A stretch of DNA of 56,506 nt from Obelidium mucronatum (Eukaryota; Chytridiomycota; Chytridiomycetes; Chytridiales; Chytriomycetaceae): NCBI GenBank assembly GCA_025765595.1, contig JAIVFH010000174.1, forward strand, positions 1 through 56,506. The letters run 5' to 3'. Of the stretch, positions 4,878 to 56,345 are shown piece by piece; the first letter of the stretch is position 1; every line of letters starts with the position of its first letter. Both the position numbers and the translations under genes were made by a program. Below the pieces are notes generated by a model. The model was not told where the DNA came from. It did no database searches and saw only the letters and a program-made list of their open reading frames with translations.

Positions 4878-6045
4878 TTAAATTGGTGTCGTTGGCTTCC
4901 CCACAATCCTCATTTGTCTCTGTTGCCTCAACGCCTCGATTTGCTGAAAAAAGTCTTCCGTTGACATCTTTGTTGGTATGATGCTTTCAGGGAGAAATAA
5001 TGGGGTCGCTGTCTGGTCGAAAGAATCAGATCCAGCCAAACTCAAATCGCTTTCCGTATGGCTACTGCAAATGCTGATATTTCCACTATTCAAATCACTC
5101 AGTGGGAGGAGTAATGGTAATGCGCTGGGTGGAAGCATGATGGGTGATAATTGAATTGCGTGTGGAATACTCTGCGTGTGCATAAATCGAGCGAATTCCG
5201 GCAGTTCTGAGGGTGCATAAAGGGGTCTCTGCGAGGATTTTGTATGCCGCCGCGATCTGTTGAGGTGGACATCTTGCGGGTAAAAGTACGATATAACTTT
5301 GAATCTTTAAGTGTATAACGTTGAGCATTAAGCCAACTAAAAAAGAGTCTTATTTAAATAATCGAAACAGACCTTTCTCCATTGTGCGCAGTAAGGGATA
5401 TTGTCCGTTTCAGCAAACAATACGGTTCAAGGGGAATTGTTTTTTGACACGTCATATTGCTGTGTGTATCCTTACGTAGAGATTTAAAGATTGTTTTATC
5501 CTCTCTGAATCGCGGAAGCTCTCTGTATTTCGTATGGATTTATTGGGCAAGTCCAAGAAACGGATGAGTGACTTACCGATGTAGCAAGAAACAGCCATCC
5601 CTTTCTGCTGACGACCATCGGAGCCCATCCTTAAATTAAGCCTCATTACTTTCGATTTCCTTATGCTAGGCCAAACTGGTTGTTGTGTTACCTCCCAATC
5701 GAAATGTCTGCCTTGAATCTGCACACAAAACACACTTCCACTCCGAGCCGATGCCTTAGCAGCCGAACTAACTAAAGCAGGAGCATATACTGGAGAAAGA
5801 AGACCTGACGTGCACGCTGCAACCAATAGCTTTGCGTCTTGAAGAGATTGAATGAACCTAAAAAAAGAGGGTAAAACAGGCCATGTCAAAATCTTTATCC
5901 ACATAGCAGTGTTTTCTATTCACCCGCGAAATGTCTCTTTGACTTGATCTTGGTTCGATATGCTGCCTGGCTGTGTGGCGTTACAGCTTGTGTCTGACAG
6001 GACTGCAGCTGGTTGAATCAGAAACCTGGCCGAAGGGCTGTCCAT
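4878..6045 (-). CDS. W1: WOPR (Gti1/Pac2) paralogue, class B tail
   Basis: Five exons: 6045-5924, 5857-5692, 5629-5577, 5522-5373 and 5304-4878. The N half runs ETFRG|FIQSLQDAKLLVAAC, RSGSVF, FDWE|DGLRWSSAERDGCFLLHR. The C half runs LLKRTISLT, FKVISYFYPQDV and APSELPEFARF. The canonical WSxSR is WSSAE here, so the usual Arg is missing. The tail carries two Pro-rich blocks, IMLPPSALPLLLPL and LFLPESIIP, then a short helix DFFQQIEALRQQRQ. There is no CxCGG motif. It is the first of three minus-strand copies and its 5' end faces W2. Introns lie at the conserved sites (G|F, W.|DG, R|E, R|F..VISYF). The reading frame appears intact. Confidence 0.82.
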
Positions 6046-6085
6046 CTCAAATCAAAGGGGGTTTTTCGAAACAGTAGACTTAAGG

Positions 6086-7508
6086 CTAGGCAGAAAGCAG
6101 TGTGGAATACTTGTCCAGATCTGAAGATAAACCGCAAAGAGAAAAAGGATGAGAGAGAGGGGGAACCATGAATTTTTTCCCCTTTTTGAAATTTTCCGAT
6201 TGGGTCGCACGTGCGGAGTCTCGCTCACCAAAATACAAGAAAATTGTAAATGAGACAGATATTACAAAACATAACAGTAGATAATTATTGTTTATTGTAA
6301 TAAAGACTTTGAAAGCGTGATTAGAGAAGTAACTGCAATCGCCTCCTTCTGCTCGTGCTCGCGGTTGACTCTCCAGCACTCTTGTTCTTGTATTCGCTGC
6401 TGCTTCAGGGCCTCGAGCCGATGAAAAAAATGATTCTTTTGGCTGCTGTGTTGGCATTATACTCGTCGGTAGCAGTAGTGGCGTGATTGTCAGGTCAAAG
6501 GAATCCGAAATGGTGGATCCATCGCCAAACTCTTCGTTCCTTGACGATGATGGCGATGGTGTTACGATAGGAAGAATGCTAGGTGGAAGCATTATCGGGG
6601 TATAATCGTGAACTTGATGAATAAGCGCCGCATGTTTCAAGAAGGGTGCAAATTCTTGCAATTGTGATGGTGTTCGAAGGTGTCCTCCTTGTCGTTGAAC
6701 TCTGGAGTTTGAATGTTGACTTCTTTTGAAAAGATGCATCACGTCTTTTGTTTCGAAGTAGGATGTTATAGTGTATCTTGAGTGATAAGGGGTCTGATTA
6801 GTCATTGCTAAGAAGTTCAAGGCTGCAATACCTTTTTCCGTCCGTCCCCTGTCAACGAAATCACTCTTTTACAGAAACAGGCGTTCGGTAGCTTGCGATT
6901 TCTCAATGCATTGGTGCGTCGGAAATTTAGGTTCGCCAGGTCGAACCTCTTCCAATATGCTGAAATTTTTTTATGGATTGTTTCAGGGGGCACGCTTTTT
7001 GACCGATAGTGATGAAACTCGTACCGATAGACCAGGAACCCTCTATCGCTGCTGGGATGAGACCAATTGAGTCCATCCTATGAAATAAACAATGTCTTTT
7101 AGCAAGGATGTCATTTTTTGCGTTTGTGTTTCATACCATCCATTTCCGTCCACTTTCACGATGAATGTAAACGCCACCGCTGCGCACTGATGTTTCAATG
7201 GACATCTCAGAGGCAAGTCGAATGCAACCCGCAAGATATGCAGCCAATAAAAGCTCTGCGTCCGTAATCGTTTGAATGTATCTGGGGGAATCCAGTGGGT
7301 ATAGATTTCATCAGATTGGTGTCAAATCACAAAAGAAAAGGGAGCTATACAACGAACCCATAGAACGACTCTGAAGCAGATTGGCGGTACTCCGTTTGCT
7401 GCGCTGCGGATGGTCGTGTAGTTTGAAGCCATGAAGTTGTGTGCCTGCTTCTTGAGGCGGTGACACCATACTTCTCATGGCCTTCGCTCTTGTGCAATTG
7501 TTGGACAT
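6086..7508 (-). CDS. W2: WOPR paralogue, class B tail, probably degenerate
   Basis: WOPR signals are present in order: ESFYG|YIQTITDAELLLAAY, SVRSGGVYI, KWM|DGLNWSHPSSDRGFLVYR, LPNACFCKRVISLTGDGR, TITSYFETKDVMHLF and LRTPSQLQEFAPF. The tail has IMLPPSILPI and LLLPTSIMP. Three problems stand out. The ESFYG frame has no in-frame ATG, since the ATG at 7508 is in another frame. The join between FLVYR and the PNA segment does not keep frame. A run of seven Ts (near 6423-6429) breaks the frame before a W1-like helix FFHRLEALKQQR, whose own stop would be at about 6292 rather than 6086. It is either a pseudogene or affected by homopolymer sequencing errors. Confidence 0.6.
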
Positions 7509-8128: not shown

Positions 8129-9253
8129 TCAAACAGCTATAAAGCTGGATGGCAGCAGAAGCGGCGAGATTGGATTATCATCGCTGTCATAATCAGTGTC
8201 GCCGTCAGTACTGTCTTCGAAAGGAATAACGGAGGGCGGCAAGGCAATTAACTCTGGTGTATGGCGGGTGGAACTAAATAAGTCCGAATCAGATATTTCA
8301 AGATATCTTGAATTGAGGCATGACAGATGGCGGTTTTAAGCGGTTCTGCGCTGTTGACGTTGATGTTATTTTCGGGAGAATGCGTGATACAGGTGGATAA
8401 TATCGACATGATTGAAGTAGGAGACAATATGGAATCTATGCGGATATAGAATTGTATTAAGAAAAAACCCGCGAATGCTTCCATTTTTTCATTCGTCAAG
8501 TAGTACCTATATCCTCGTGTGGATTTGACCGTGATGCTTCGTTTACACAGCCCATTTTCGACCTAACTGAGTTCCTTGGACCAGAGAAACTTCCGAATTT
8601 GATTGGTCGTGCATTAAACTATTGTCGACATGACCGCACTGCATCTGTTCGACTTGTCTGCGTTTTTTGAACATTTGTAAGCAAAGAGAGCCAAGCACCA
8701 CTTCGGAACATTGCACGCACCTGCTTAGCATGAATCGACCAACAGCTATCGCAGGAGACCACATCATCCCATCCTAAAATCAATCAGAATAAGTTGTTTT
8801 ATGTAAATAAATAATAACTCACATTCCACTTGAGTGCATCGTCCACAGTCATAATGAACACACTGCCGCTTCGAACATGAACATCGCAGGCTTGAGTCAA
8901 CGGAACTAAATCTATTGACGCAGCTTCAGCTAGAATAGCGGCATCGATGGGTTCCTTCACAAATCTAAAATTGTATGTCAAAAACCCCTATCATCAGTCC
9001 GCCCAAAAAAAGAAGCCTCATACCCAAAGAACGATTCGCTCGACTCCAAAGTAAGCTCTGGAGACGCAAAGGAGTGGTCTAGGGCGGGGAGGTTTGACTG
9101 GGCACTGCTGCTGCTTCTTTGGCTAATCAAGACTGGAGCTGGGGGCTTCGAGTCTCTTTGCAGAGGAGGCATTGGATGAAGCGTTGTCTTTGTATCCCAT
9201 CCAGAGGCACAGAGCGTGAAACACATTGTGCTTGCTGCCATTGTCGTTTGCAA
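8129..9253 (-). CDS. W3: WOPR paralogue, class B tail, with several frame breaks
   Basis: The 5' part is well preserved: SSESFFG|FVKEPIDAAILAEAA, HVRSGSVFI, KWN|DGMMWSPAIAVGRFMLSR, with introns at the family positions. Downstream, the segments VENGLCKRSITV, FHIVSYFNHVDIIHLY, LKPPSVMPQF and LIALPPSVIPF are all recognisable. They lie in different frames that no clear GT..AG introns connect. At least two one-base shifts are needed, around 8330-8400. The last block PLLLPSSFIAV ends at a TGA at 8129-8131. It has the class B tail and no CxCGG motif. The likely start is 9253 or the in-frame ATG at 9241. It is probably a decaying copy, though assembly errors cannot be excluded. Confidence 0.6.
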
Positions 9254-11985: not shown

Positions 11986-13479
11986 ATGAACTACGACTCG
12001 AATGACCAAAGAGACTTGACTGCCATGGAAGCGCTGCTGCAGATGGCTGTGGCAGAGGATCTTGAGCCCTTCCAAGCACCACCAGCCAGAAGCACCCAAC
12101 AGATCAGCTATCGTACTTCTAATCCAGTCGCACTACACCATACACATGCTAGCACTCCTCCTATCCCTCCACAAACTCCCGCATTCAACTGCCACAGTCT
12201 GTTCGTCAAGACTCCCTTTGAGGCCCATTTGATTGTTGAAGCTGCAATTGGGGGCAACTTCCCTATTGTAAACGCTGGTGTATCTATGAACATCGGCAGC
12301 AGTCCCCACATTCAATCTGGTTCTGTAGTTGTTTTCGCTGAGAACAACCAGTTTTCGCAGATGCTCCGCTTTCGGGTAAGCGTGTGCATATGCGTGGTGT
12401 GTATATTGGCACTAAGCACCCTCCTGACTACACCAAAAATACTTAAACACTAGGACGGAAGAAGGTGGTCCCCTTCAAGACCGCAAGGTCCTTTTCTGTT
12501 GTATCGGTGGGTTGCTTTTTTTTCTGTCTCCATCTCTACGGTCGTCAGCGTTATTTATTTTTTTATCTTTCTCATCTCCCAAAATCACATCTCATGACAG
12601 GGAAGTAGAAGCAGTGACGCAACAAAGACGTCCGAAAGAAGCATCCACAAGGTTTCGCATCTTTAATTTTAAAATTTTGCGTGTCTTTGAGGTACTTAAA
12701 ACCAAAGCATGAAAATATAGATTCACCAACGTTGCTTTACGACTTAATTCCCAATTTGTCAGTAATGGATTAGCGAAGCGGACTCTGCGCGTCCTTGGCA
12801 GTGTGAGTTCTTCATTTTTTACATGTACCCATTTGGGCGATTCGAAATGTTGCCAAATCGAAAAAAAAAGACATGCCAACACTTTAATATTTATTAATCA
12901 ATGTAAAAATCACTCACGAAACAATCACACACGAATAGGATGGACTGAAATACCGTGTCATCAGCTACTTTTATCCAACCGATGTTGAGCATTTGTTTCA
13001 TGAAGGGAAAACGGGAAGGCTTATCCTTCCATCCAACAGCCAGGGAATTCAAACCGTTCATTTCGAAGCTGGAGGGTCTTGATATTGTTGGCCGGCCGGA
13101 TGCTTTTCCTGCACCATCGTCATCATCAAATGGGAGTGAAACCAGCACGAAACGAAAGCGGTTCAGGAATTTCCCAGATGACTTATATACACCAGTTCTC
13201 ACACGAAGTAGACTAAAGTCAGCAGCGAACTCGGAAGCTGTTGAAGCAAAGTCGCCTGTTCTTGAGTCCTTGAACTCTATTATTGAGTGCAATACTGTCA
13301 TCACCCAATCCGTGCTTGAGGGGGACTTTGGAAACCACGCAATATTTCAAGTCAACAGGCCCATACCACCACAATGTCCTTGTGGAGGGCTGGGTGTGAG
13401 AAAAGCTGCGGATTACTTTCGCGGCGAAAAGGAGGCATGGACTGGAAAGTCAGTGTGGCTCGCACCGTTGAATCATTGA
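11986..13479 (+). CDS. W5: WOPR paralogue, class A tail, with a frameshift
   Basis: Exons: 11986-12375, 12454-12506, 12601-12651, 12721-12802 and 12939-13479. The domain includes SLFVKTPFEAHLIVEAAIGG, IQSGSVVVFAENN, LRFR|DGRRWSPSRPQGPFLLYR, FVSNGLAKRTLRVLGS and DGLKYRVISYFYPTDVEHLF. In the last exon the frame changes by one base between LILPSNS and EFKPFISKLEG (about 13030-13045), inside the conserved PSxxPEF element, with no splice site to explain it. Beyond that the tail is intact: HAIFQV, CPCGGLGVRKAADYFR and WLAPL. Read literally, the protein would end soon after the break. The start at 11986 is chosen because the in-frame upstream ATG (11911) adds unrelated sequence. Confidence 0.7.
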
Positions 13480-13751: not shown

Positions 13752-15346
13752 GTGAAGCACCCGTCAACAAGAAGAAAAAAAGACTTCAATTTGGTCAAGA
13801 ACCCGACCTTGAATCAGGCACCGGACCAACCTTACATGAACAACTTAAACGTCCTGCTAGCAGCTGCTGAATCCTACACAGAGCCACCCCCATCTACAAG
13901 CTCACTATCCGGGATGCTGCGGCCGGAAGGAACAATCACCATCAATCGAAATCAAACTGAGGAGATCCAAAACACCGAACCCGAACAATACACTGGATTT
14001 ATGCCATCTCCAATCGATGCCCGCTGGAAGACGAATCTTTTTATATCAACGCCATTCGAAGCCCAACTAATCCTCGAAGCTGCTTTGAATGGATGTTTCC
14101 CCATCCTGAACAGCGGGCCCTGCAGTTCTCCTGCATTGCCGTCCATTCAATCCGGAACTGTTTTGATTTTCGCTGAAAAGGGAAGTCATTTCACTCAAAT
14201 GGTTCGGTTTCGGGTACGTTTTGGAGGGAAATTTAAGAAGTGTGGTCGTGATGAGCCCACATATTACTAATTCGGATCTCTTGGGTTTTAAGGACGGAAA
14301 AAGATGGTCTCCGTCTAGGCCTCAAGGTCCGTTCTTGCTTTACCGGTAAGATATCTTTGATTTGATTTTCCATCATTGATTCCGATCACCACATTTTTCG
14401 ATATCTTTCACAATCTCATCTCCAAGGCCTCATTTTTTTTTCTCTTAGTGAAATCGAAGGATTTGGAGGAATTACGCATGTTGGATCAGTGATTGAGAGG
14501 TCGAGCAGGTAAGGTTGTCTTCTTTTTTTTTTTTTTGGCGATTCTGAAGTGCAACCCCCCAAAAAAGATTCGTCAACAAGGCGTTGAGAGAAAGATGCAG
14601 ATTTATTCCAAACGGTTTAGCGAAACGATCGATTGGATTAACCGGAAGCGTAAGTATTACTGTGTTTTTTACTTACTGTCTGATGATATTATCATATTTA
14701 GGACGGTCTTAAATATAGAGTCATGTCATACTTCTATCCTATGGATGTGGAGCATATATATGTGTCTGGTAATACTCACGGTGTCTTGACGATTCCGTCA
14801 GAATGTCCAGAATATCAATCCTTCATCAAATCTGCAAAAGATCTACAAGAACCGATACCCCGTTCGTTGTCTACTGTAACCTCAAACATTTCGCAGCCTG
14901 CATCGAATGCGCAATATAGTTATACCTCGGCACAGCAACCTGGTCGAAGCAATCTTCCATCAACCCGATCCAAACCTTCGCGAGGCAACAGCAAGTTACC
15001 CTATTCTCGACCTCCTCCAATTTCTGAAGCTGCAAGCATACCCGAAACAGTTCCCAAACGGAATCCTTCTCCAAGCTGCTATTCGCAACTTTCTGCGGCA
15101 AGTTCCGATAGTCTTGAGATCTCGCCACACGCTGTATTCCAAGTGGAGAATCTGGACAGCACCGGCATGGGTCGCTTATTTGAAAATCATGCCGTTTTCC
15201 AGTTGAGAAGGGTTCGGCGCGGAGAAAGCCAGTGTAGTTGTGGTGGGCTGGGGATACGCCGAGCTGTTGATTATTTTCGGGGACAAGAAGACTGGACTGA
15301 GAGGCCAGTTTTTCTTGCACCGTTGTTGAATTTTGAAAAACGGTAG
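13752..15346 (+). CDS. W6: WOPR paralogue, class A tail with doubled HAVFQ
   Basis: Exons: 13752-14213, 14293-14345, 14449-14508, 14568-14649 and 14702-15346. It has the same intron set as W4 and W5 (R|DG, R|EIE, SSR|FVN, GS|DG), with all frames open. The N half is NLFISTPFEAQLILEAALNG, IQSGTVLIFAEKG, DGKRWSPSRPQGPFLLYR. The C half is RFIPNGLAKRSIGLTGS, DGLKYRVMSYFYPMDVEHIY and IPSECPEYQSF. The Ser/Pro-rich tail has the short element HAVFQ twice, about 23 residues apart, then CSCGGLGIRRAVDYFR and DWTERPVFLAPL. The start was chosen as the first ATG of the open frame. The N-terminus before the domain is about 95 residues and low complexity. Confidence 0.88.
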
Positions 15347-15679: not shown

Positions 15680-17369
15680 ATGATTCCGTACAGCAACTAT
15701 CCGCAGCAACAACAATCTGTTATCAATATGGGCAGGGGTCTTTCTGCAAGCCGACTTCACGACATGACACCTCCCCTGCCACCACAACCAGTGTACATCT
15801 TCCACCACACTTTCTTTGGGTTTATTAAAGACAGTCACGATGCCGCTTTGGTTATTGCCGGCTGCGTGGCCGGAGATCTACAGCCCTTCAACACGGCCCC
15901 AATGAACTCTACAAGCATCCAAATTACAAGCGGAACTGTGTTGGTATTTCAGGAGAATTCAGGAACGTCGATGGTCAGGTGGCGGGTCAGTCATCAATCA
16001 TTGCCCCAATTGTCTCTTTTTTTTCCTTTAGATCTGGGCGTTTGTTGTGACATTGTCAACAGATTGTCGCAGTTCCTTCCTTATCTTTGTTTGCGCTTGT
16101 TGTCTTATAGGCGTGGTATTCATATTTATTTTGTTCTTAGGATGGCAAGCGGTGGTCTCCGTCCAGACCGCAGGGTCAATTTTTACTGTATCGGTGAGTA
16201 TTTCCTCTCTGGCGCAGTCCTCCTTTCATCCCTTATCAATCACCTCACTTTCCTTGAAGAATATGCTGTGACTCAGGAGATGAAATTACGCGCTTTCTTG
16301 ATTTTCTACTAAGTGCATTTCGGCGGATGACTACTAAGAGAATAATTTGACTTACCAAACCACAAACACACCACAAAAAAAAAACAATCAACAACAGAGA
16401 AGTGGAAGCTAACACGAATCCAAATATGCATCATGAAGTTGAATTGAGTTCACGGTTTGTCAACATGTCCCTACGCGGTAGCTGCCGGTTTATTCCCAAT
16501 GGCCTAGCAAAGAGAACGATTGGGTTGGTTGGAAGCGATGGGAATAGATATAGGTGAGAATAACTTTATTATTTTGAGCCAAGAATTCGGAACTATATTA
16601 TGTTTTTCCTTTGTAATGAGGCCCTTTGTATTGAGACTTTCTTCTAAAAACCTTTTGAAAACCCAGAGTCATCAGCTATTTTTACCCGCCCGATGCCGAA
16701 AGATTCTTTGAAGATAAAAGAGACGACGTTATGAGACAAAGCAGACAAGTTCTATTTATGCCGTCTCAGTTGCAGCAGTTTTTCAAATACCGAGATGTGG
16801 ACGAGGCAGAACGGTATTCGCCACCGCCAAACTCCAGGAAAAGAAGCGCAAGTAGTAGCAGTGAACGAATCGTGAGCCCCCAGCGACACGGAAGTGGGGG
16901 ACTTTGTGCACAAACCTCTTTTGGCACGTATTCCCCACCACTGCCAGCAAGAGCACCAACTCCTCAACATTGTTCAACAGTAGCTTTTCGCTATCCTACA
17001 CACCGCTATAGGCCATACTTACGGCATCTGTCGTCTCCTCTTCTACCAACTCTCCCTGTTTTGGCACAACAGCAGCCATCGCCTTCAACAACGTCAAGCA
17101 CAGTATCACTACTGCCACCATTTCAAGCAACAGACGAACGAGCTTACTTTCGGGGCGAAAACGCATTCCATCCAATGTTTCAAGTCAGCGATATGGGAGG
17201 GTGCCATCAAAGAGCTACTGGCGGCAATTTCGGCCATAGTCACAGCAGTGATGTCCGTGCGAGCTGCCCGTGTGGGGGATTAGGGATTCGGAAAGCTCAT
17301 AATTACTTTTGGAATGATCCCTTTTGGTTTGATAGGCCGATACAGCTGGCGCCTTTAAAAAAGGTTTAA
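15680..17369 (+). CDS. W7: WOPR paralogue, class A tail
   Basis: Exons: 15680-15985, 16141-16193, 16398-16553 and 16667-17369. The N half is HTFFGFIKDSHDAALVIAGC, ITSGTVLVFQENS, VRWR|DGKRWSPSRPQGQFLLYR|EVE. The C half is FIPNGLAKRTIGLVGSDGNRYR|VISYFYPPDAERFF and MPSQLQQFF. The tail is Ser/Pro-rich, then FHPMFQV, SCPCGGLGIRKAHNYFW and FWFDRPIQLAPL. Compared with W4-W6 it lacks the introns at GS|DG and before FVN and gains the R|VISYF site, a structure shared with W8 and largely with W9. All frames are open. The ATG at 15680 is the first in the frame. Confidence 0.9.
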
Positions 17370-40297: not shown

Positions 40298-40794
40298 TTT
40301 CAACTTTTTTTAAGTTAGTTTTTAATATTTTGAATCGTTTTAATGGTATAATTGCAATAGAATCTTTGATTGTGACTTGTTTGTGTGACCTTAGATAGCG
40401 ACTTTGAATTGGTATTGAATTGGTGTCTTCTCTGCGAAGCAACACGCATCTGAATGCACCTTGTCTGATGCGACACTTAAACAATTGTCAGCAAGAAAAA
40501 AAGCCTGTTGTGATGAGGGTACCTCCCAACCAAAGATCAAGATAACCGCCCCCACCCAGACAAAAGAAAAACCTCACATGGAAAAAAACAGACACCGCAA
40601 AAACAAAAGAAAAAGAAAACGAGAACCTGAAATAACACCAACACTGAGAACTTTATCTCCACTTTTCGACTCGTTAGATTAAATTTCTTGGAGGAGCGCT
40701 TCAAACGACTTTACTTTTTTGAAAAAACAGAAGCAAACAAACAAAAAAAAAGTTGCTGTGTTCAAGCCCGAGAAACCCAACCACTTCTTGCCAA
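40298..40794. other. spacer W18-W19
   Basis: A 73-codon Lys/Arg-rich open frame at 40461-40682 has no domain and is probably part of the A-rich 5' flank of W19. Nothing else is seen. Confidence 0.4.
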
Positions 40795-44390: not shown

Positions 44391-45488
44391 ATGACTAACA
44401 ATGCCAACATGAGACCGGCACCCCAGCGGTTGACCACGCAACCAAACTACGACTTTGAAACTTTCTACGGTAAATATGCTTTGTTCTAGATGAACTTGTT
44501 TTGCTCTCCCACACTATCAAGATAAAAAGGTGGTTCTTTCCTTTGTTAAATGACTCGTGTGTTTTTTTCTTTACAGGATGGATTCAAAATCGGGCTGATG
44601 CGTTCTTGGTTATTGAAGCTTGTGTTAAGGGAATGTTGCATCCTGTCATGCCCTATATGCATACAAGCACTGAAATCCGAAGCGGATCCGTTGTAGTATT
44701 TACCCAACGGTCGACGGATGTCAACTCGATTCGATGGAGGGTGCGTGAGGAAAAATACCGAGGGGCAACCAAATTTCGAGTCAACCTGTATATAAAAAAC
44801 AGGATGGTCGAAATTGGACTACCTCAAAGCTTTCGGAAAACTTTTTGTTGTACAGAGAGACGGAGCCGAAAGGAAGTCCGTATCGTGGACGGGAAACCTG
44901 TGCACTCTTTCCTGCTGGAAGCCTGAGACCCAACACTCAATTGGTCCCTGATGGAATGTGCAAACGGACAATGTAAAATAATACTGACATATATAGAGTT
45001 CATGTATGCTGTTCTGACTGATATTTATATTGTTTTTTTGGACTAGAACTTTGACTGGGAGCGATGGCTTGAGATATCGTGTGATAAGCTACTTTAAACC
45101 CAAAGACGTTGAGCATCGCGTTACAAGAACACGAGCCACTCGAGGCCTTGGATTGAAAACTCCCTCGGAATTACACGAATTCGATGAAATCAAGCGGGTT
45201 TTAGCTTCAAGGGGTCGGATTCTTTCAAATTCGCCAAACAATCAATTAGATTCAAGCACGTCCCCAAATTCAAGACTACCAGGAATATCTTCTTTTGGAA
45301 ATGAAAGCTCTACCCCTGAGATACTGTATAGAGTGCGGTATCAAGGAAGGTTGGAAACGTTTGGTTGTAGTTGCGGTGGACTTGCCGGGCTTCATCCATT
45401 TGATTACTTCCGTCGAGATCCATCTTGGCTCAATGAACCGGTTATTCTTGCCCCTTTGTGGATGAAGCGCTATTTTGTAAAGAATTAG
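44391..45488 (+). CDS. W21: WOPR paralogue, class A tail
   Basis: Exons: 44391-44469, 44577-44740, 44803-44972 and 45047-45488. A 26-residue N-terminus leads to FETFYG|WIQNRADAFLVIEACVKG, TEIRSGSVVVFTQ, IRWR|DGRNWTTSKLSENFLLYRETE, LRPNTQLVPDGMCKRT|ITLTGSDGLRYRVISYFKPKDVEH and TPSELHEFDEI. The intron at KRT|ITL matches that of W16. WSxSR is WTTSK, as in W17. The tail is compact and ends FGCSCGGLAGLHPFDYFRRD, WLNEPVILAPL. All joints keep frame. Confidence 0.9.
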
Positions 45489-45873: not shown

Positions 45874-46947
45874 ATGCCGGCGAACGACTCTGAATCCTTG
45901 ATACAGCCCGGCACCATTGAAGCGTTCAAAAAAGCAGAGACTTCAACATCCTACCCTCCAAGTCCGGAGCATACAAACGATTGTCGGATCGAGACCTTTT
46001 TTGGGTTTGTCAAGAACAGTTTCGATGCGAAACTTGTGGTTGAAGCATGTGTGCAAGGTCTGGCCTCCTTTTTCCACTTGCGACTGTTCTGCTTTTAACT
46101 CTGAATTGCAATAGGCTTATTGAAAACGATCCAACAGATTCCATATGGGATCTCCCCAAAAATTCGATCAGGAACAACGGTAGTTATTCAGGATCGGATT
46201 GAGAATACTGGATGGAGGGATGGCCGAAACTGGAGCTGTTCCACACAAGAGCGGGATGCCGATGGGTTCCAGTTATACGTGAGTCGAAAACGAAAAGTAG
46301 ATTATCTGGAACTAACCCAAAATCAGCGGGAAGTAGAATCAGATACACTTCCAACAAATCATCGAGGACGACCGATGAGACGAGAAAGGAGCCCTCTCTT
46401 TTCAGTAACCCATACTCGACCTGGATCTCGTCTCATTGTGAATGGGATGGCAAAAAGAATTATTCGCATAACTGGCAGTGATAATTGCCGATACAAGGTC
46501 ATCAATTATTTTCATGTGTGCCATGTCCAACATTACTATCTGGTCGACAACAGCTCGGATTCTAAAACACGGTATCGATGTTCGGGCCCATTGAGGACAC
46601 CTACTGAACTCCCTGGATATGCAAAGATTCGAGCGGTGTTACTTTTGAATGGGGCACAGTTTCGGACACCGTTTCCCGTTTGTAAACGAGAAAAGAAGCA
46701 GGAGTTTGAGCAAGTAACGGCAGCTATGGACGTTTCGAAAGAAATCAGGCCAGTGAGGGTTTTGGCTGTAAATGAGTTGAAGGCTGAAAAAAGTGGAGGG
46801 CACCCGTTGGTCTTGAGATTTCAAGCAGAGGGGGCACGATATGGTGGAACGGGGATGCAACAAGCAATATCATTGTTTCAGCAAAACCCCGATTGGGCCG
46901 AAGCGCCAGTTCTCTTGCCACCTCTTGGCACAAGTGGCGATAGTTAA
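45874..46947 (+). CDS. W22: WOPR paralogue, class A tail with cysteines lost
   Basis: Exons: 45874-46057, 46115-46278 and 46327-46947. ETFFGFVKNSFDAKLVVEACVQG|LL, PKIRSGTTVVIQD, TGWRDGRNWSCSTQERDADGFQLY|REVES, RPGSRLIVNGMAKRIIRITGSDNCRYKVINYFHVCHVQHYY and TPTELPGYAKI. The WSxSR loop has a several-residue insertion. The tail segment ARYGGTGMQQAISLFQ aligns residue for residue with CSCGGLGIRKAADYFR of other copies, with both cysteines replaced. It is followed by DWAEAPVLLPPL. The start at 45874 is preferred over an in-frame ATG six codons upstream. Confidence 0.88.
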
Positions 46948-47193: not shown

Positions 47194-48459
47194 ATGCTCT
47201 CTCCAACACTGTCAACGCAAGCGGCTTCCTTTGACTTTGGAGTGAATATGGTCCAGTCGCCATTGGAGGCACTTTGTCCTGTCAGAGGGGTCGTGACCAG
47301 CGCTTCTAGGTCTGATGAGTTCAAACCCACATCGACAGCTGAACCAGTTCGTATCGAGACTTATTTTGGGTATGTACAGTCCCCCTTCTCACTCTTAGCT
47401 TGTCTTAACCTTTTACAATGCCACCAGATTTGTGGAAAAGACTGTCGATGCCTATTTTCTGGTCGAGGCCTGTGTTTCTGGAACTCTTCCCTGTGTCAGA
47501 GAACCAATTCGCCAGCCAATGCTTCCTGTGCGCAGTGGCAGTGTCATTGTATTTGAACTGACTGATAATGACAAGAAGATGAAATGGAATGTGCGTATAC
47601 GATCACCACCCAAACAACTTCCAAATCTCCAAACTAAACATTATTCTCTTTTAAATGTATAGGACGGAAAACAATGGTCTATTGCAACCAAGGAAGGCAG
47701 CTTTGTTTACACCAGGTACCGTCTTTTGACATAATCTATTTATAATCATTCCAAAACTTGTTAACTGAAAAATGCCAATTAATAATCTCGAAACAATACA
47801 GAGAGGTCGAACCAACCAATTCCAAAGTCCACGCACGAACTACTCAGCGAGAAAAAAGCAATCTCTTTGTGTCATGCAAAGTGAGACCAGATACCAAACT
47901 GATTCCCAACGGCCTTGTCCGCCGATGCATCTCCATGAATGGAAGCGATGGAAAACGATACCGAGTGCTTTCCTACTTTTACCCTTGCCATGTCCAGCAA
48001 TTTTATGTGTCTGCGGGCAAGACCCGTTGGGGGCGTGGTCCTTTGCAGACCCCTTCTGAACAGCCGAAATTCGAGCGCTTCATTAAGCAATGGATTGCCT
48101 TCAACTTTGCGAAAAAGCAAAAGCAAAAGATGGAGGACGAGTTGTCGCCTTTGCCGCCAAGTATTATCCCGCTTGATATGCGTGCTCCACAACTGGGTGT
48201 GCCTGTGGATGATTGGGACCGTTTGGAGCAGTTGCAGAAAACTCAGCCTCAAGAACAAAAGTGCATTAAAACTGCTGGTACTGTCGAGGCTGGTCCATTG
48301 ACGCCATCTGTTTCCCCAACGCATCAGAAACAAACAGAATCTTCATCACGAAAGAGAACTTACTCTGTTATGAATGGAGCCGTTGATGGAATCCCTACAC
48401 CTATTCAATCGCTCGATGCTGTTGATTCTTTACTTTTGCTTGCACAGCAATCTAATTGA
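47194..48459 (+). CDS. W23: WOPR paralogue, class B tail
   Basis: Exons: 47194-47369, 47428-47590, 47663-47715 and 47802-48459. ETYFG|FVEKTVDAYFLVEACVSG, LPVRSGSVIVFEL, MKWN|DGKQWSIATKEGSFVYTR|EVEP, RPDTKLIPNGLVRRCISMNGSDGKRYRVLSYFYPCHVQQFY and TPSEQPKFERF. WSxSR is WSIAT, as in the other class B copies. After the domain comes an amphipathic Lys-rich stretch (WIAFNFAKKQKQKMEDEL) and then SPLPPSIIPLD, the first class B block. A Ser/Gln linker and IPTPIQSLDAVDSLLLL follow, without a second clear LPPS block. The intron set is identical to W24 and W25. Confidence 0.88.
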
Positions 48460-48937: not shown

Positions 48938-49984
48938 TTGGAATTACTACAAGACAAGATTGACAATATGAACTATGCGGAATGGACTCATTGCAATCTT
49001 GAAAACGAATCATCATCAAGACATTACAATTTACCATATCAATATCCGGAGACTTTGGGCAAGCTTTCAGTACCGCCGCTTGAAAACGCACCTTATTTGA
49101 GTACCGAAACCTTCTTTGGGTAAACGTCACAGTTCTCTTGATGAGTGATAGCAGGCGTCTAAATTTCAATATTCATGAGTCAGTCACGTTCACAATCGCA
49201 TGGACTGTTATATTCTTGTTGAAGCTGTCGCTGCTGGTGTGCTCAAGCCTTATATGGCGAATGTTGCTGTCAGGCCAAAAAGTGGGAGTGTCTATGTTGT
49301 CGAACATGAGCAAGCGTTCAAGGTAATAAATTCACTGGCTTCAGAATGGCTTCAAAAACCAAATTTAGTCGTAATATCTATTACACTTTCTAGGATGGTT
49401 GTGTATGGTCCAATGGAACGGTGACAGATTTATTCCTGACATTTCGGTAAGATACAGCAGTATTCGGGAATATGTGTTTCGATTAAATATGCTAATATAA
49501 AACAAAAATAAACAGGAAAGTCAAGAAAGATTGTCTTGAAAAGGAACAACGACGCACGAAAAAGCACGAAAGAGGGCTCGTTAAGCGAGTTCTTTCCATC
49601 ACGGCATCAAACAATGAGACATACCAAGTAGTTTCATACTTGTGTTTCAAAGATTTTCAGCTTTTGTATTCCAAGGAGACGCGGGCGTCTTCCGTTTGTT
49701 CAAGGAGACTGCAGCAGCCATCTGGAATGCTTCAATACCAGCAGTTTATTGTTCAATGGACTCAATTCAAGAGAATGAAATATATTCAGGATGCAATTCA
49801 CGCTGAGCTGACTCCACTTCCGCCGAGCTTGTTGCCTTTCAATAATGGAGAGAGTCAATTTCCAGCTGATAACTGGGATGGTGAGTCACCCAATGTCGAG
49901 AGATATTCCGACACTCTCGGTGACGTTGAATTACCAGAATCATTGATTCTACCTCCTAGCGCCTTACCTTTATGGAGTTCTTAG
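48938..49984 (+). CDS. W24: strongly divergent WOPR paralogue, class B tail
   Basis: Exons: 48938-49119, 49184-49322, 49394-49446 and 49516-49984. In-frame starts are 48938 or 48968. ETFFG|HVHNRMDCYILVEAVAAG, RPKSGSVYVVEHE, FK|DGCVWSNGTVTDLFLTFR|KVKK, ERGLVKRVLSITASNNETYQVVSYLCFKDFQLLY. Both the RW pair and WSxSR are lost, and the linker is short and basic. The tail has QWTQFKRMKYIQDAIHAEL, TPLPPSLLPFN and the terminal ILPPSALPLW. Despite the divergence all splice sites are conserved with W23 and W25 and the frame is open. This argues for a maintained gene. Confidence 0.83.
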
Positions 49985-50316: not shown

Positions 50317-51548
50317 ATGGAAAACAACTGCCGCAAGAACACTGGCGCCAAGTTGGAATGCGGGGAAGTGGGCAGCACATCCATCCCACCGCTGCTGAGT
50401 CCTTGCACGGATTCAGATGTGGAGTCCAACAGCGGCATCTGCTTGAATGAAAGTGACTCTGCTCTGAACACTCAAGAGACCTTCTTTGGGTATGTTTTAA
50501 AACACCAAAGAAGCTTATTCACCCAATGACTGTACTAACTTCAAACGTAGTTACGTAAGAGACACAATCGACTGCTATATTCTTGTCGAAGCTGTCGTGG
50601 CTGGACTGCTGCGTCCATACACTGGTGCCAGTGGATCTGTCAGAAACGGAACTGTTCTGGTCATCCCGCTCGACTCTCGCCCAAACAAGTTTATGGTACG
50701 GTCGACATCTTCTTACTCCCTCGGGCTTAAATTTATTTATTTCTACAGGATCACCGCCAATGGTCCGCTGCAAAGACGCAAGGCAGCTTTAAAGTTACGA
50801 GGTGTGTGTGTGTGGGCAAAAATCACGTGAAATCGATAATCGGAAAATAATCTAAAAATCGAAAATTTCCTTCTTGATTTATAATTCAAATTAAAACAGA
50901 GAGGTCGAGGCCGTCAACACGTTCCGTCACTCATCATCGGCAATTAAAACTCGACGCAATAGTTGTGCAGGTGTTCCCGGGGCTGTATTCCCCACATGTA
51001 CGGCACGCTTTGGTACAAGAATCAAAGACCAAGGACTCATGAAGAAGTCTCTCTCCATGAATGGATCAGATGGTCATTTATACCGCGTTATTTCGTACTC
51101 ATATCCCAAAGATGTGGAACACTTCCACAAGCTCGAGCCTACCACCAATCGCCTCTCCCACTTTTCGCCGCTCCAATGTCCTTCTCAAATCTGTCAATAC
51201 CAGCAATTCATTACAAAATGGGTGCAATACAACAAGCTCAGGAAAATGCGAGAGCAGATTGAATCTGAGCTTGTTCCTCTTCCCCCAAGTGTTTTCCCTG
51301 TGGAGAATCTTGCACCACAACCTGAAGATAACTGGGAACTCTCTGTAACACCACGACCGGATCACTATTACCAACTTCAACAAGGCGAAAACGGGTTCAT
51401 TAGTTTCGATGAAATGGACAGTTTGTTGCCCTTGTCGCTGCCGCCAAGTATTTTGCCATTGAACCAGCCAAAGGAGGTTGCGGTGGAACAGATTCGACAA
51501 GTGCTGTTACGTGAACAACGAATCATGCAGCAGAATAATCAATTCTGA
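50317..51548 (+). CDS. W25: WOPR paralogue, class B tail
   Basis: Exons: 50317-50489, 50551-50695, 50749-50801 and 50900-51548. ETFFG|YVRDTIDCYILVEAVVAG, SVRNGTVLVIPL, KFM|DHRQWSAAKTQGSFKVTR|EVEA, QGLMKKSLSMNGSDGHLYRVISYSYPKDVEHFH and CPSQICQYQQF. The QGLMKKS form of the second-half motif is nearer to the ascomycete GLIKKT form than in most copies. The tail has KWVQYNKLRKMREQIESEL, VPLPPSVFPVE, then LSLPPSILPL followed by a helix VEQIRQVLLREQRIM. That last helix resembles the terminal helix of W1. The start at 50317 is preferred over in-frame ATG 50215. Confidence 0.88.
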
Positions 51549-51793
51549 GCCAAACTATATCTATACCACATCGCAGCCACGAATATACTCGAACACAATT
51601 TACGTACACCAAAAACGTCACATACATTCATTTATAGAATAGAAGAGCGAAGTTGAATCTTCCAAATAAACACAAACTCCCATGCTGTTTCTCGTTTACA
51701 TTTGTATTCAATACAATGAATCTTTAAAAAAAAGGTGATAAAAAAAGGAACCAAACCGCAATCCCCAAAATCCCCCCCTTGACAAAAAACCAC

Positions 51794-54528
51794 CTAATCA
51801 TCATCTTCACTATCACTAGAGTCATCATGCTCCTCGCGAACCTTGCTGCCGCCAGAACCAGGAACCTTTCCAGCCTTCAATGCAGCCATCTGTCCAGCAA
51901 TCGTGTCTTCATCCGGCTCACTCATCTCTTCCTCAATAATCGCAGCACTGATTTCCGGCACATCCACAACTATAAGTGTCATTTCAATGTTCAAGTCACA
52001 ACCCATGCTCGAATCGTTCTTGACAAAGACGTGGAACTTCCACTGTCCAGGCTGCGGTGGCGCTTGGAACTGTAACTTGCAAGTCTTTGGCGGGCTTCCT
52101 GGAGGACCACTGTTGTTAATTTTCCCCAAGCAAATCAGACGATTGTTTTCGGGAGATCCCATCATGATCCACCAAGCGCTGTTTTTCTCGTTGGGGAAGT
52201 AAGGGCAGTGGGTAGGAAAGAGTTCGGCGGCGGTTTGTTCGAACCATTGGGGTTTAACTTCTTCATGGGAGACGGGGGGTGGGTTCACATCGATGGGGAT
52301 GACTCCTTCTTGTTTCTCGCGGGCGGCTTCTTCGGGTGTGATGTGTTCGAGAGTGACGGCGAGAGTTACAATGGAGCCTGGGGTGATGTATTCTTCGCCC
52401 ACAACTTCAAGAAGAAAAAAATTAATAAAGGTTTTGGCAGACTATGGGCACATTGTTGTTTTACCTGAGAAATTGCATTTGGAAACACGAACCAACGGGT
52501 ATTGTTGGGCAATAGCAAAGAGTTCGTTGTATTCGGCGTCGGAAAGGGATTTGACGAGGTCTCGGCGTTCTTGTTCCGGTAATTCGACAAACTCACGAGG
52601 GCAGGTGACTCTTCGCTGTTTTGTTGGTGCGCATTGATTTAAGAATTTCACAACTCAGTCTGCAAAAAGTTACAAAGTACCTTGGCAGTCACAAATTGCT
52701 TCAAGAGGTCCAATGTAAGATAAGGAAGTTGGCCTAATGGTCCCCTTGATGGAAGAGAAGCCTGGATAATCGCCTGGCGCAAATCAATGGCAGCCATCGC
52801 AGCGCTCAACCAGAATCGAGCCGCACAAATCTGCAAGACACCAACAACAACCATGGATGCAACTTCAGCAACACGAGATTGCTCTTTAGCGAGAGTAGCA
52901 TTGTCAATTTGAATACGCGCCAAGTGACTGTAGAGGAGGATTTGGATCTTGTGGGTAATGGCTTCTCCGACGTTTGTGTACTATGACATTTTGGAGTTAT
53001 TTTGTTGAGGACTGGTTATTCTTGTTTTTTTTGTTTTTTTACCTTCTTCTTGGCTTCAAACGGATATCCAAACTTTCCGATTTCCGTGGCAACTTTTTGA
53101 GCCAATTCTTCAACAAGAGCTCGTTCCTCTTTCTTATACGACACGGCGTCAATCAATTCATCAGCTTGGCAGATGATGTCAATCAAAACTGAAAAAAAAT
53201 ATCAATTAGAAAACCAATAACCAAATAAAACATGCAACACATACGGCGCGAATTCGAATCGGCCTTGACTTCCTTGTAAAACTTGCCCATCGTTTCGTGA
53301 CAGATCTTATCGTTGTTCATATTCTTTGAGCTGTACCACCAACGGGCAACGAAAATAGGCATAAAGATTCCAAAGATGGCACCATAGAGGAAGAGAACCA
53401 GTACATTGTTCTTGGAATCAACCAAGTATTTTGGAAGTGCGATTCCGAGAGTCAAAGCTTTGAAGTTTCGTTTAAAAAAAAGCACATGGTTTGGAAATAA
53501 CAGCAAAAGACATGTCTGTCTACCTTGACGACCATCAGGGTGTCCGAATTCGTCCCACGTCTTTCTAGCTTCTTCGTCCGTCAATACTTTTTGGGCTTTG
53601 GAAAGCTCATTGTACTTTGTCGCTGCTGCAGCCTTTTCTTCTTCTGTTCCTTCAACCTTATCGGGGTGGCTGTAGGAAAAGTCGTTATTAAGACCAATTG
53701 CCATCACAAGGAAAAAAAAATCCGAATAATTGAAAGTTACAATTGAAGAGAAAGCTTTCTGAATTTCTTTTTGATTTCTGCTTCTGTGGCGGCCTGTTTT
53801 TTTTTAGCGAAGAAATCAGGAAAACCCAAGTTTAATGATCCCAAGCAAGTCCAGACTCACCGTGCTGACACCCAAGATTTCATATGGATCCCACAGACCA
53901 CTTTCTGCAAGTTCGGCAGTGGCCACCTTGTACGCTCCAAATGCAAACACAATCCAACCCAGAATCAACAACAGGTTCCTGATGGTGCAACAAACCAAAA
54001 GATTTAAAAAAATGAGGAAGCAAGTTTATCGGTTTTTGAAGGAAGAACGGAAATGTTGATGACGCTGTTTCAAAATGACACTTCCACGTTCTGAAACATC
54101 CAAGACGGGCTTCCCATCAACCGATCGATATCTTTAAGTCCGAATATAGCCCTTAATTTGAAAGATCCAGATCCGGACAGGCATCTTTGATTTTGTCGTT
54201 GCGTTTTTGATGCAATATTGGGATGGGGTTTTTTTACTTTGTAGACAGAGTTCCGGCTTTGGAAGCAGCCTTTGCCTTTGCGACTTTCACAGTTTTCACA
54301 GCACATTCCTTGCAAGGACAAGCAGGGACTCCTGTGTTATAAGTGTGGTTGGGTTGGTGTGTCCACAAAAGAGAGCTCTTTTTTACCCTTGACATGTTTG
54401 ACAACGATAGGAGCAGTGCTTGTTCCGAACAGCGATGAATACGTCGTTGGGATCAAGACTAGAGCCAGGAAAGATACTACAAAGTAATAGAAAATGCTGC
54501 CATTCTCGTCGTATTCGTATTGGCCCAT
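51794..54528 (-). CDS. SEC63: SEC63 homologue, ER translocation J-protein
   Basis: Subunit of the ER protein-translocation complex that recruits the lumenal Hsp70 through a J domain. The N-terminus MGQYEYDENGSIFYYF and the first membrane helix are typical of Sec63. A second helix (LLLILGWIVFAFGAYKV) leads into WDPYEILGVS. The J-domain HPD sits at about 53662-53670, followed by a helix ending TDEEARKTWDEFGHPDG. Another membrane helix follows (NNVLVLFLYGAIFGIFMPIF). The cytosolic Sec63/Brl part runs from about 53250 to 52440 and continues to an acidic tail SSDSEDDD at the stop (51794). About seven introns were seen, with exact limits not all resolved. It separates W25 from W26, tail-to-tail with W25 and head-to-head with W26. 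Confidence 0.92.
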
Positions 54529-54941
54529 TTTTGTCGAATTTTTGTTGATTTTCTTTGGTCTGTTGGCATTTCGACAGAGACTTCGTAAGAGCTATTCTGA
54601 ACTGAACTATTGCTTGAAGATCGTGATTGGAGTGTTCAGAAATATGTTGCTTTTTAGCATCAAAGAAGATGTGCTTTAGATACTTTTTATTTAGACATAA
54701 AGACGACTGCCTCTGTTCAACAACACAAAACAACATTACGATCGTTGTAAATATCGTTCAAAGCGTTGAGTTTCACTCCTTTTCCCTTAGTCAGTCGCAC
54801 TTGTTCTGCCAAGATCATCATCTCCAAAACAAACCTGAAACAACTATCCCCAGGAGCGGATACTGGGCGAAAAAGGAAAGCAAACGATTATCCCAATCGA
54901 AGTTTCAGCAGCCCCCTTACCCCCAGTTTTCAAATCTCTTC
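54529..54941. other. divergent spacer SEC63-W26
   Basis: Shared promoter region. The W26 frame stays open upstream to 54627, but that sequence is Cys/Phe/Ile-rich and unlike any WOPR N-terminus, so it is treated as 5' flank. Confidence 0.45.
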
Positions 54942-56345
54942 ATGAATCACAACCATCATCAGAGTCTTCCACACTCTCGCAACAGTTGGCCTGCCGCACA
55001 AAACACTGGTGCCAATCGAAACACTTATCAAATGCATGACCAAGAGCCTGAATTAGCGGGTCCTTCATTTCAATCACAACAACCAAGCCACAATATCCAA
55101 GCCACACAAGTCCCCCACAGCACCATCCCCACTAGCACCAACCCCACAGCAGCCCCACAATACCAACAAACCAGTTTCGGTTTCGTCAAAGACAAGGAAG
55201 ACGCAATCCTGATAATCGAAGCCTGCGTCTCAGGAGCTCTGAAACCCGTCTCTGACCTGACAACGTCCACCTCGCTTCTAGCAATGCAAAGTGGAACAAT
55301 CCTCGTGTTTGTTGAAAACAGTGAACAGATGCAGAAAATGCGGTTCCGCGATGCTGGAGCGTGGTCATCTTCGCGCATCAGTGGTCCCTTCCTGTTGTAC
55401 CGGCAAGTTGAAACCAGTGACAAGAAGAAAAATGATGTCATTTTGGCAGGGGAAAAGAGTAGTTTGTTTACTACCACTTCATTGCGGCCTTATACCAAGT
55501 TGATTCCCAACGGGCTTGCCAAACGGACGATTACGATTTCAGGGAGTGATGGGAATCGGTATCGAGTGATCAATTACTTTTACCCGAATGATGTGGAGGT
55601 GTTTTATAAACGGAGTAGTGCTGCGGGGCCGAGTAACCGGATGGCTGGGCAGGTTTTGCCAATTCCAAGTCTTCAGCCCGAGTTTGACCAGTATAAGCAT
55701 TTGATTCCTGGTGGGCTTGGGTCTTCATCATCGAGAGGTGGATCCAGGAAAAGCAGTCGCCAGAGTTCTCCAAGTGGGGCTGTGATGGGGATGGGTGCGG
55801 ATATGAGTGAATCTCCTACCGTATCTTCATTGGACTCTAGTGGTAGTGCATCACGAAGAGTGTCGTGGAAACTAAGTAACTCTTCGACTGGATACATGGC
55901 TATTCAAGATTTGGTGCAAGTTGAACCACATCTACAACAAGCACCGCAGCCAGGACATAATAATCCGTATTCCACCTCCGACTACCAAGCTCCTAGAGCC
56001 CACTCATACCCACCACCCTTCTGGATTCCGTCAACATCTCAAGCACATACACAAAACGCGCAGTCTCAATTCGTGTCAAGCGAAGGACCTAGCCTGCATT
56101 CTGCGTTAATGGCAAACAGATATGATGTCCTGGGGCGAACTTTTGGAGCACCAATACTGAGTGTTCGGGAAATGGCTATTCAAGGAGGAGTCCCACATTG
56201 GTTGAATGAGCCTGCGATATTACCGCCGTTGCGTAATCTGAATGTGTTGCCACAACCGGAATATATTCAGGATCATTACGGAGGAATGAGGATTGTGATG
56301 ATGATAGCGAGCGGTAGTCAGCTTTTTCAAGAAATAAAGTACTGA
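54942..56345 (+). CDS. W26: intronless WOPR paralogue
   Basis: One open frame of about 467 codons from ATG 54942. The N-terminus is His/Gln/Asn-rich. The opening motif is TSFGFVKDKEDAILIIEACVSG, then AMQSGTILVFVENS, MRFRDAGAWSSSRISGPFLLYRQVE, LRPYTKLIPNGLAKRTITISGSDGNRYRVINYFYPNDVEVFY and IPSLQPEFDQY. All intron positions used by the paralogues are uninterrupted. The domain is most like W19 (FTTTSLRPYTKL against FTTSSLRPYTRL; GAWSSSRISG against LHWSSSRISG). The Ser/Gly/Pro-rich tail ends with MAIQGGVPHWLNEPAILPPL, a cysteine-free class A terminus, and a 35-residue extension. The array may continue past the window edge. Confidence 0.9.
   Translation: MNHNHHQSLPHSRNSWPAAQNTGANRNTYQMHDQEPELAGPSFQSQQPSHNIQATQVPHSTIPTSTNPTAAPQYQQTSFGFVKDKEDAILIIEACVSGALKPVSDLTTSTSLLAMQSGTILVFVENSEQMQKMRFRDAGAWSSSRISGPFLLYRQVETSDKKKNDVILAGEKSSLFTTTSLRPYTKLIPNGLAKRTITISGSDGNRYRVINYFYPNDVEVFYKRSSAAGPSNRMAGQVLPIPSLQPEFDQYKHLIPGGLGSSSSRGGSRKSSRQSSPSGAVMGMGADMSESPTVSSLDSSGSASRRVSWKLSNSSTGYMAIQDLVQVEPHLQQAPQPGHNNPYSTSDYQAPRAHSYPPPFWIPSTSQAHTQNAQSQFVSSEGPSLHSALMANRYDVLGRTFGAPILSVREMAIQGGVPHWLNEPAILPPLRNLNVLPQPEYIQDHYGGMRIVMMIASGSQLFQEIKY

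What the first reader, a model, noticed from the sequence alone, without database searches (positions are those of the whole stretch)
4878..56345. Tandem array of 26 WOPR (Gti1/Pac2) master-regulator genes
Seen: 26 consecutive loci each carry both WOPR half-domain signatures (DA..L.EAC...IRSG.V...RWRDG..WSxSR..G.FLLYREVE, then NGLAKRT..GSDG.YRVISYFYP.DV...PSxxPEF). Known: most fungi encode one or two WOPR proteins, which act as phenotype-switch regulators (Wor1, Ryp1, Sge1). Inferred: a lineage-specific expansion of a developmental-switch family by local duplication, interrupted only by an LRR-SAM receptor gene and SEC63. I know of no described cluster of this size.
Basis: partly seen in the sequence, partly recalled or inferred. 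Interest (0 to 1): 0.96.

Follow-up and report, generated by a model that had tools for sequence, protein, structure and literature searches.

The report
Ancient 27-gene WOPR regulator cluster
A chytrid fungus carries 26 relatives of fungal cell-fate switch genes side by side in this stretch, in a likely old cluster whose members, and apparently part of their order, recur in related genera; most copies show signs of selection to stay functional, and they are predicted to bind DNA and would likely switch sets of genes on or off.

Summary
In detail: 26 WOPR (Gti1/Pac2) genes, 3 minus and 23 plus strand; PF09729 matches 26 of 26. The window is a whole contig of Obelidium mucronatum. An allelic contig carries all 26 plus a 27th just past the window's end; 13 more distinct loci were read elsewhere in the genome. 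The array is not recent or species-specific: median identity between copies is 36%, neighbours are closest kin, and orthologues, linked in partly the same order, occur in other Chytriomycetaceae genera. Between alleles the domain is under purifying selection (dN/dS 0.13; off-frame controls 1.6-2.1), but A24, A02 and A01 look relaxed, and 11 of 26 genes differ by one-base coding indels of unknown cause. Two features stand out. A C-terminal tail (CxCGGL..W..PV.LAPL) occurs in 15 of 27 copies and in 0 of the 94 fetched proteins from outside the family. The threonine of the RWTDG motif, read here as the PKA-type site of studied WOPR proteins, is missing from 27 of 27. Separate roles as transcriptional switches are inferred; 'master regulator' is untested. 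The kind is known; I found no description of a cluster like this in nine searches of an incomplete library.

The parts
4878..5868 (-). A01 WOPR gene (domain 5178-5868)
   Evidence: LPPSxLP-type tail; relaxed, dN/dS 0.42
6086..7371 (-). A02 WOPR gene (domain 6635-7371; 3' end of model unsure)
   Evidence: dN/dS 0.66
8366..9037 (-). A03 WOPR gene (domain 8384-9037)
   Evidence: weakest domain score, 65.5 bits
10420..11697 (+). A04 WOPR gene (domain 10420-11218); tail at about 11605-11697, in another frame than the end of the domain model
12202..13470 (+). A05 WOPR gene (domain 12202-13013); tail at about 13375-13470, in another frame than the end of the domain model
14040..15346 (+). A06 WOPR gene with tail
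15809..17369 (+). A07 WOPR gene with tail; best match of a Siphonaria protein
17993..20125 (+). A08 WOPR gene with tail
20293..21765 (+). A09 WOPR gene with tail (domain from 20431); groups with proteins of Siphonaria, Rhizoclosmatium, Podochytrium, Chytriomyces and Physocladia
22372..23578 (+). A10 WOPR gene, diverged first half
24347..25766 (+). A11 WOPR gene with tail; orthologue in Podochytrium
   Evidence: published protein P0018 is its allele
26489..27460 (+). A12 WOPR gene
28093..29124 (+). A13 WOPR gene with tail; orthologue in Siphonaria; allele modelled
   Evidence: published protein P0001 is its allele
29369..31964 (-). interrupting LRR gene with a hydrophobic, transmembrane-like stretch
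   Evidence: (LRR_1 E 2.6e-9 on one exon piece)
32969..33791 (+). A14 WOPR gene
34513..35615 (+). A15 WOPR gene with tail; orthologues in Chytriomyces
   Evidence: published protein P0003 is its allele
36346..37409 (+). A16 WOPR gene with tail
37906..38831 (+). A17 WOPR gene with tail
39545..40297 (+). A18 WOPR gene; orthologues in Podochytrium and R. globosum
41131..42241 (+). A19 WOPR gene with tail
42690..43870 (+). A20 WOPR gene; best match of half a Podochytrium protein
44570..45488 (+). A21 WOPR gene with tail; best match of half a Podochytrium protein; relatives multiplied in Physocladia
45991..46947 (+). A22 WOPR gene with tail variant; orthologue in R. globosum
47356..48459 (+). A23 WOPR gene (LPPSxLP subgroup)
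49106..49984 (+). A24 WOPR gene, degenerate first half, dN/dS 0.84
50476..51548 (+). A25 WOPR gene (LPPSxLP subgroup); orthologues in Siphonaria; allele modelled
51794..53803 (-). interrupting SEC63 gene
   Evidence: Sec63 Brl and DnaJ on exon pieces, just under cut-offs
55167..56345 (+). A26 WOPR gene, domain in one exon

Best explanation
This is a tandem array of 27 WOPR-domain (Gti1/Pac2) genes, 26 of them in this window, that is likely ancient, likely grew by repeated local duplication, and whose proteins are predicted to bind DNA and likely act as separate transcriptional switches for different steps of the chytrid life cycle. Shown: 26 domains, a 27th on the allelic contig, PF09729 in 26 of 26, purifying selection between alleles on the pooled domains and on the last 30 downstream residues, relatives of single array members in other genera, and a shared C-terminal tail. 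Predicted by model: the WOPR fold for alleles of two members (A13, A25). Inferred: orthology and conserved order (from a tree, best matches and locus tags), DNA binding, nuclear role, specialisation of each copy, and that the tail binds a shared partner. Because the threonine of RWTDG is replaced (by arginine in 20 of 27), I infer that these proteins are not gated by phosphorylation at that site. Control would then rest on which copy is expressed and on the tail and the variable linker.
For: 26 of 26 domains match PF09729. AlphaFold2 models of P0001 (A13 allele) and P0060 (A25 allele) match the solved WOPR structures 4m8b, 4qtj and 4qtk first (best E 5.1e-11 and 8.7e-9). Pooled allelic dN/dS is 0.13 in the domain (4355 codons; off-frame controls 2.06 and 1.63), 0.27 downstream (3471 codons; controls 1.19 and 1.20) and 0.14 in the last 30 residues of the 24 genes with at least 50 downstream codons (717 codons). 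23 of 26 genes have dN/dS of 0.34 or less. In the tree, A09, A11, A13, A15, A18, A22 and A25 join proteins of other genera with SH-aLRT 81-100. Apparently linked best matches: Siphonaria A13-A09-A07, Podochytrium A20/A21-A18-A11, R. globosum A18, A22 and A12 (or A13), Chytriomyces confervae A09-A15. Neighbours are closer kin than in shuffled orders (p 0.0002). A tail profile made from other genera finds 15 of 27 array copies at E<0.02; best shuffled E 0.49.
Against: No expression, DNA-binding or knockout data. Wor1's core site TTAAAGTTT is at chance in the window (1 found, 1.36 expected) and no shared upstream word was found beyond A-rich runs, so self-regulation is not supported. T is absent from 27 of 27 copies at the RWTDG threonine, read here as the site whose mutation impairs Gti1, Wor1 and Sge1. 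A24 (dN/dS 0.84), A02 (0.66) and A01 (0.42) may be decaying. 39 one-base coding indels separate the two contigs in 11 of 26 genes, only 6 of them in homopolymers. One search also shows a stop in A04 on C84, a gap over one A25 donor site, and an indel at the stop codon of A14. Whether these are assembly errors or real breaks is open. 12 of 27 copies (A01-A03, A10, A12, A14, A18, A20, A23-A26) miss the tail at E<0.02.
Confidence: 0.65

Rival explanations
1. The copies are retained duplicates without distinct roles: a family that expanded by tandem duplication and persists by dosage or slow drift, with little specialisation.
For: Some members look relaxed (A24, A02, A01). Copy content seems to differ between genera, and Physocladia appears to have its own burst of A21-like copies.
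Against: Median identity of 36% between copies with low allelic dN/dS, and single array members with their own relatives in other genera, speak for distinct, maintained roles.
Confidence: 0.2
2. The array is a reservoir for variable recognition or stress responses, with copies expressed one or a few at a time, rather than a developmental programme.
For: Large tandem family next to an LRR gene; strongly diverged members (A01-A03, A10, A14, A20, A24) with long branches.
Against: Purifying selection at allelic level and relatives of single members kept between genera, unlike typical fast-turnover recognition loci (recalled).
Confidence: 0.1
3. A decaying array: largely pseudogenes.
For: 39 one-base coding indels between the two contigs in 11 of 26 genes, 33 of them outside homopolymers; 45 frame-breaking against 14 in-frame coding gaps. 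A24 lacks a good first half; A04 has a stop on C84.
Against: 15 of 26 genes show no one-base coding indel, including all of A13-A25 (one search puts one at the stop codon of A14). Genes with indels such as A09, A12 and A26 still have dN/dS of 0.08-0.13, which fits sequence errors better than decay.
Confidence: 0.06
4. An assembly artefact: one or two loci copied by misassembly or by counting haplotypes.
For: The assembly does keep both haplotypes apart (window and C84 about 94-95% alike; a third contig, C274, overlaps 4.9 kb).
Against: Copies are 22-64% alike at protein level, two contigs are collinear over bases 107-56506 of the window, and other species' hit lists appear to link the same genes.
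Confidence: 0.02

Closest known systems
WOPR (Gti1/Pac2) transcription factors: Wor1, Mit1, Ryp1, Sge1, Gti1, Pac2, Ros1
   Same: PF09729 in 26 of 26; predicted fold as in 4m8b and 4qtj for 2 of 2 models; both half-domains with variable linker
   Different: At least 40 distinct loci instead of about two; tandem array; mostly RWRDG instead of RWTDG; extra C-terminal tail in 15 of 27; function untested
Gti1/Pac2 family dynamics in early fungi (PMC10406608; passages read)
   Same: That paper lists Gti1/Pac2 among the most dynamically changing transcription-factor families of early fungal evolution
   Different: The passages read name no cluster; 'obelidium' and 'wopr' occur 0 times in its main text; its supplements were not open to me
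Hox and similar ordered clusters of developmental regulators (recalled, not searched)
   Same: Tandem cluster of predicted DNA-binding regulators whose members and, apparently, partial order recur across genera
   Different: Different family; no evidence here of order-dependent expression

Membership tests
WOPR / Gti1_Pac2 (PF09729) | Match to the curated family model | tested here: met
   26 of 26 spliced domains, best E 6.9e-27
WOPR / Gti1_Pac2 (PF09729) | Both half-domains (WOPRa and WOPRb) in one gene | tested here: met
   Own profile aligned from positions 1-6 to 146-172 of 172 in 26 of 26; first half of A24 weak; A03, A05 and A18 end at 146-151
WOPR / Gti1_Pac2 (PF09729) | WOPR fold | tested here: met
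   2 of 2 models tested match 4m8b, 4qtj and 4qtk first; other copies not modelled
WOPR / Gti1_Pac2 (PF09729) | Sequence-specific DNA binding | not testable with these tools
   Needs purified protein; Wor1's core site is not enriched in the window
Studied ascomycete WOPR regulators (Wor1, Gti1, Sge1) | Conserved PKA-type threonine in WOPRa (a trait of studied members, not of the Pfam family) | tested here: not met
   At the RWTDG threonine, T in 0 of 27 array copies, R in 20. Among 179 fetched proteins: T in 0 of 85 from Chytriomycetaceae (R in 73, no readable motif in 8) and in 92 of 94 others. Role of the threonine: passages of PMC3364952; that it is the RWTDG one is my reading
Studied ascomycete WOPR regulators (Wor1, Gti1, Sge1) | Control of a phenotype switch or sporulation | not testable with these tools
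   No expression or mutant data available

The most novel reading that the evidence does not exclude
A Hox-like regulator cluster in a chytrid: an ordered bank of WOPR selectors, kept in order since before the chytrid genera split, in which position in the array sets when each switch is used in the zoospore-cyst-thallus-sporangium cycle, with a shared C-terminal tail recruiting one common cofactor.
Probability: 0.15. Interest if true: 0.93.

Novelty: new variant of a known kind. Interest (0 to 1): 0.73.

Why it matters
WOPR proteins set cell fate in yeasts and moulds, where papers state about two per genome (PMC4917244, PMC3364952, passages). A 27-gene array with 13 further loci read, apparently old and largely constrained, suggests that one chytrid family built much of its regulatory machinery from this single domain. 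It offers about 40 natural variants of one DNA-binding domain, a new conserved tail to trace to a partner, and a natural replacement of what looks like the phosphorylation site of Wor1. It also makes a testable cluster for asking whether gene order matters for stage-specific expression outside animals.

Tried and rejected
Self-regulation through Wor1's site: TTAAAGTTT 1 found against 1.36 expected, TTAAAGTT 4 against 3.95; not supported. Shared upstream element: the most frequent words of 7-10 bases upstream of 23 plus-strand genes are A-rich runs; nothing usable. Tail packing on the domain: the A13-allele model gives the tail low confidence (block means 45-69), so no docking claim. The 2.9 kb insertion on C84 between A13 and the LRR gene holds no WOPR copy; it has matching inverted ends and a 638-residue frame without a Pfam match, so it looks like a transposon. 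Exact genome-wide count: I could read 13 dispersed loci besides the 27; further exon-level matches on C2, C8, C50 (four places), C155, C163, C173, C245, C348, C443, C472 and C490, some of them probably alleles of each other, could not be read, so I say 'at least 40'. The first allelic dN/dS run compared models with different exon choices in some genes and is superseded.

Tree: 105 rows, quick search, SH-aLRT only. Of the 74 relatives fetched by then 65 were used; 9 proteins of Obelidium itself were left out because the DNA models stand for them. Long branches (A01, A02, A03, A10, A14, A20, A24) are placed unsurely. The 105 proteins new are not in the tree. Same-contig linkage in other species rests on equal contig lengths and near-adjacent locus tags in the hit lists, not on reading those contigs. 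The hit lists are capped: one search listed 120 of 1571 hits, and searches scored only the candidates sharing most words, so counts per species are not given.
Full report
What is there. I aligned a WOPR profile to the window allowing introns, on both strands. After one round of profile building, 26 loci score 65-244 bits and the best background match scores 17.7. Three run on the minus strand at the left end and 23 on the plus strand, with a median spacing of 1.77 kb and two wider gaps, one holding an LRR gene and one SEC63. PF09729 matches 26 of 26. The splicing is credible: published proteins of the same species (P0001, P0003, P0018) agree closely with my models for A13, A15 and A11.

Whose it is. 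Hits P0001, P0010 and P0019 are named Obelidium mucronatum and lie on contigs of 152575, 143870 and 402532 bases, the lengths of C84, C89 and C19 of the window's assembly. The species belongs to Chytriomycetaceae, Chytridiales. The window is the whole contig C174. C84:70568-129887 is collinear with bases 107-56506 at 94-95% identity, apart from a 2.9 kb insertion that looks like a transposon. It carries all 26 genes and a 27th at 130378-130946. A third contig, C274, repeats 4.9 kb of it.

Genome count. Besides the 27, I read 13 further distinct loci: five in a second tandem cluster on C86, two on C19 (also on C206), three on C40 (also on C122 and C326), and one each on C37 (also C262), C89 and C159. 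So at least 40 distinct loci, against two stated for most fungi (passages of PMC4917244; PMC3364952).

Age. The array copies are 22-64% identical (median 36%). Neighbours are closer on the tree than in shuffled orders (mean 3.15 against 3.78, p 0.0002; 20 copies without long branches: 2.29 against 2.73, p 0.0002). In a tree of 105 domains, A09, A11, A13, A15, A18, A22 and A25 each join proteins of other genera rather than other Obelidium copies (SH-aLRT 81-100). Best-match comparison of apparently linked proteins gives A13, A09, A07 for one Siphonaria contig (tags 8339, 8341, 8342). For one Podochytrium contig it gives A20 and A21 (one model), A18 and A11 (tags 566, 567, 569). R. globosum has A18, A22 and A12 (or A13, nearly equal) on contigs of one length; C. 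confervae has A09 and A15 (g09123, g09124); C. cf. hyalinus JEL632 has A09, A15 and a third copy. For that third copy, P0040, the tree favours A27 and best match favours A19. Not every linked pair fits: those of Physocladia, Entophlyctis, Chytriomyces sp. MP71 and a second JEL632 contig match one and the same array member or dispersed loci rather than different array members. By tag number the Siphonaria and Podochytrium genes run in the order of the Obelidium array. All these genera are placed in Chytriomycetaceae. Linkage is read from hit lists, not from contigs.

Constraint. Comparing the two alleles, pooled dN/dS is 0.13 in the domain (off frame 2.06 and 1.63), 0.27 downstream (off frame 1.19 and 1.20) and 0.14 in the last 30 residues of 24 genes. 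By gene, 23 of 26 lie at 0.34 or less; A24 (0.84), A02 (0.66) and A01 (0.42) are the exceptions. Against full function: 39 one-base coding indels in 11 of 26 genes, 6 of them in homopolymers, none in A13-A25. One search, with another alignment, adds one at the stop codon of A14, a stop in A04 on C84 and a gap over a donor site of A25. Low dN/dS in several affected genes fits sequence errors, but this is not proved. Codons holding a gap or a stop were left out of these counts.

Signature changes. In the first half-domain the solved proteins and most relatives read RWTDG. The array has R at the third place in 20 of 27 copies and T in none; 13 of 13 dispersed copies have R. Of the 179 fetched proteins, T occurs in 0 of 85 from Chytriomycetaceae (R in 73, no readable motif in 8) and in 92 of 94 others; one of those others, from the chytrid Geranomyces, has R. 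The 94 are a capped sample: one search listed 120 of 1571 hits. PMC3364952 (passages) says a conserved threonine in WOPRa resembles a PKA site and that its mutation impairs Gti1, Wor1 and Sge1; that this is the threonine of RWTDG is my reading from recalled Wor1 numbering. Second, a C-terminal tail: a 31-column profile from 22 proteins of other genera finds it in 15 of 27 array copies at E<0.02 and in 3 of 13 dispersed copies at E<0.002; the best of 1235 shuffled pieces has E 0.49. In A04 and A05 it lies in another frame than the end of the domain model. Among the 179 proteins it occurs in 49 of 85 from Chytriomycetaceae (22 of them the training set) and in 0 of 94 others, in 47 of 49 within 25 residues of the end. 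A01, A02 and A23-A25 carry LPPSxLP-like stretches instead.

Fold. AlphaFold2 models of P0001 (A13 allele) and P0060 (A25 allele) give confident WOPR domains and low-confidence linkers and tails. The solved WOPR structures are the only matches under E 0.001. The A25 allele adds long helices after the domain.

Reading. The simplest account is an old tandem family of DNA-binding regulators in which copies have taken separate, maintained roles. DNA binding, specialisation and the tail's partner are inferred. I did not find self-regulation sites.

Literature. Nine searches combining WOPR or Gti1 (or the species) with chytrid, Chytridiomycota, early-diverging fungi, Rhizoclosmatium, paralogues or tandem expansion listed no paper whose title or abstract start describes such a cluster. 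I saw listings only, except for passages of PMC10406608, PMC4917244 and PMC3364952. PMC10406608 does list Gti1/Pac2 among dynamic families in early fungi. The library lacks most subscription journals. A tenth search, for the Wor1-DNA complex, found nothing.

Confidence went from 0.66 to 0.65, the pseudogene rival from 0.05 to 0.06 and interest from 0.74 to 0.73, because the A04 stop, the A25 donor gap and the reliance on locus tags are now stated in full.

Noticed in passing
G000:C86:54784-74170: A second tandem cluster of five WOPR genes that fall outside the array clade and show no CxCGGL tail.
   Followed up: partly
G000:C84:100485-103394 (L011): 2.9 kb insertion absent from the window's contig, with matching inverted ends and a 638-residue frame without a Pfam match; probably a DNA transposon.
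   Followed up: partly
window 2092-3433: GH5 cellulase-like gene to the left of the array (PF00150, E 1.3e-6 on one exon).
   Followed up: no
G000:C274:1-4985: Third copy of window 35674-40562 at 94% (96% to C84); a third haplotype, a mosaic or a duplicate.
   Followed up: partly
window 4878-27460 and 55167-56345: One-base coding indels between the two contigs cluster at both ends of the array and are absent from A13-A25.
   Followed up: partly
P0075 (Podochytrium HDU98_000566): One gene model holds two WOPR domains whose best matches are A20 and A21: a gene fusion or a merged annotation.
   Followed up: no
P0007, P0043, P0044, P0048, P0053, P0055 (Physocladia obscura): An apparently independent burst of A21-like WOPR copies in Physocladia.
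   Followed up: no
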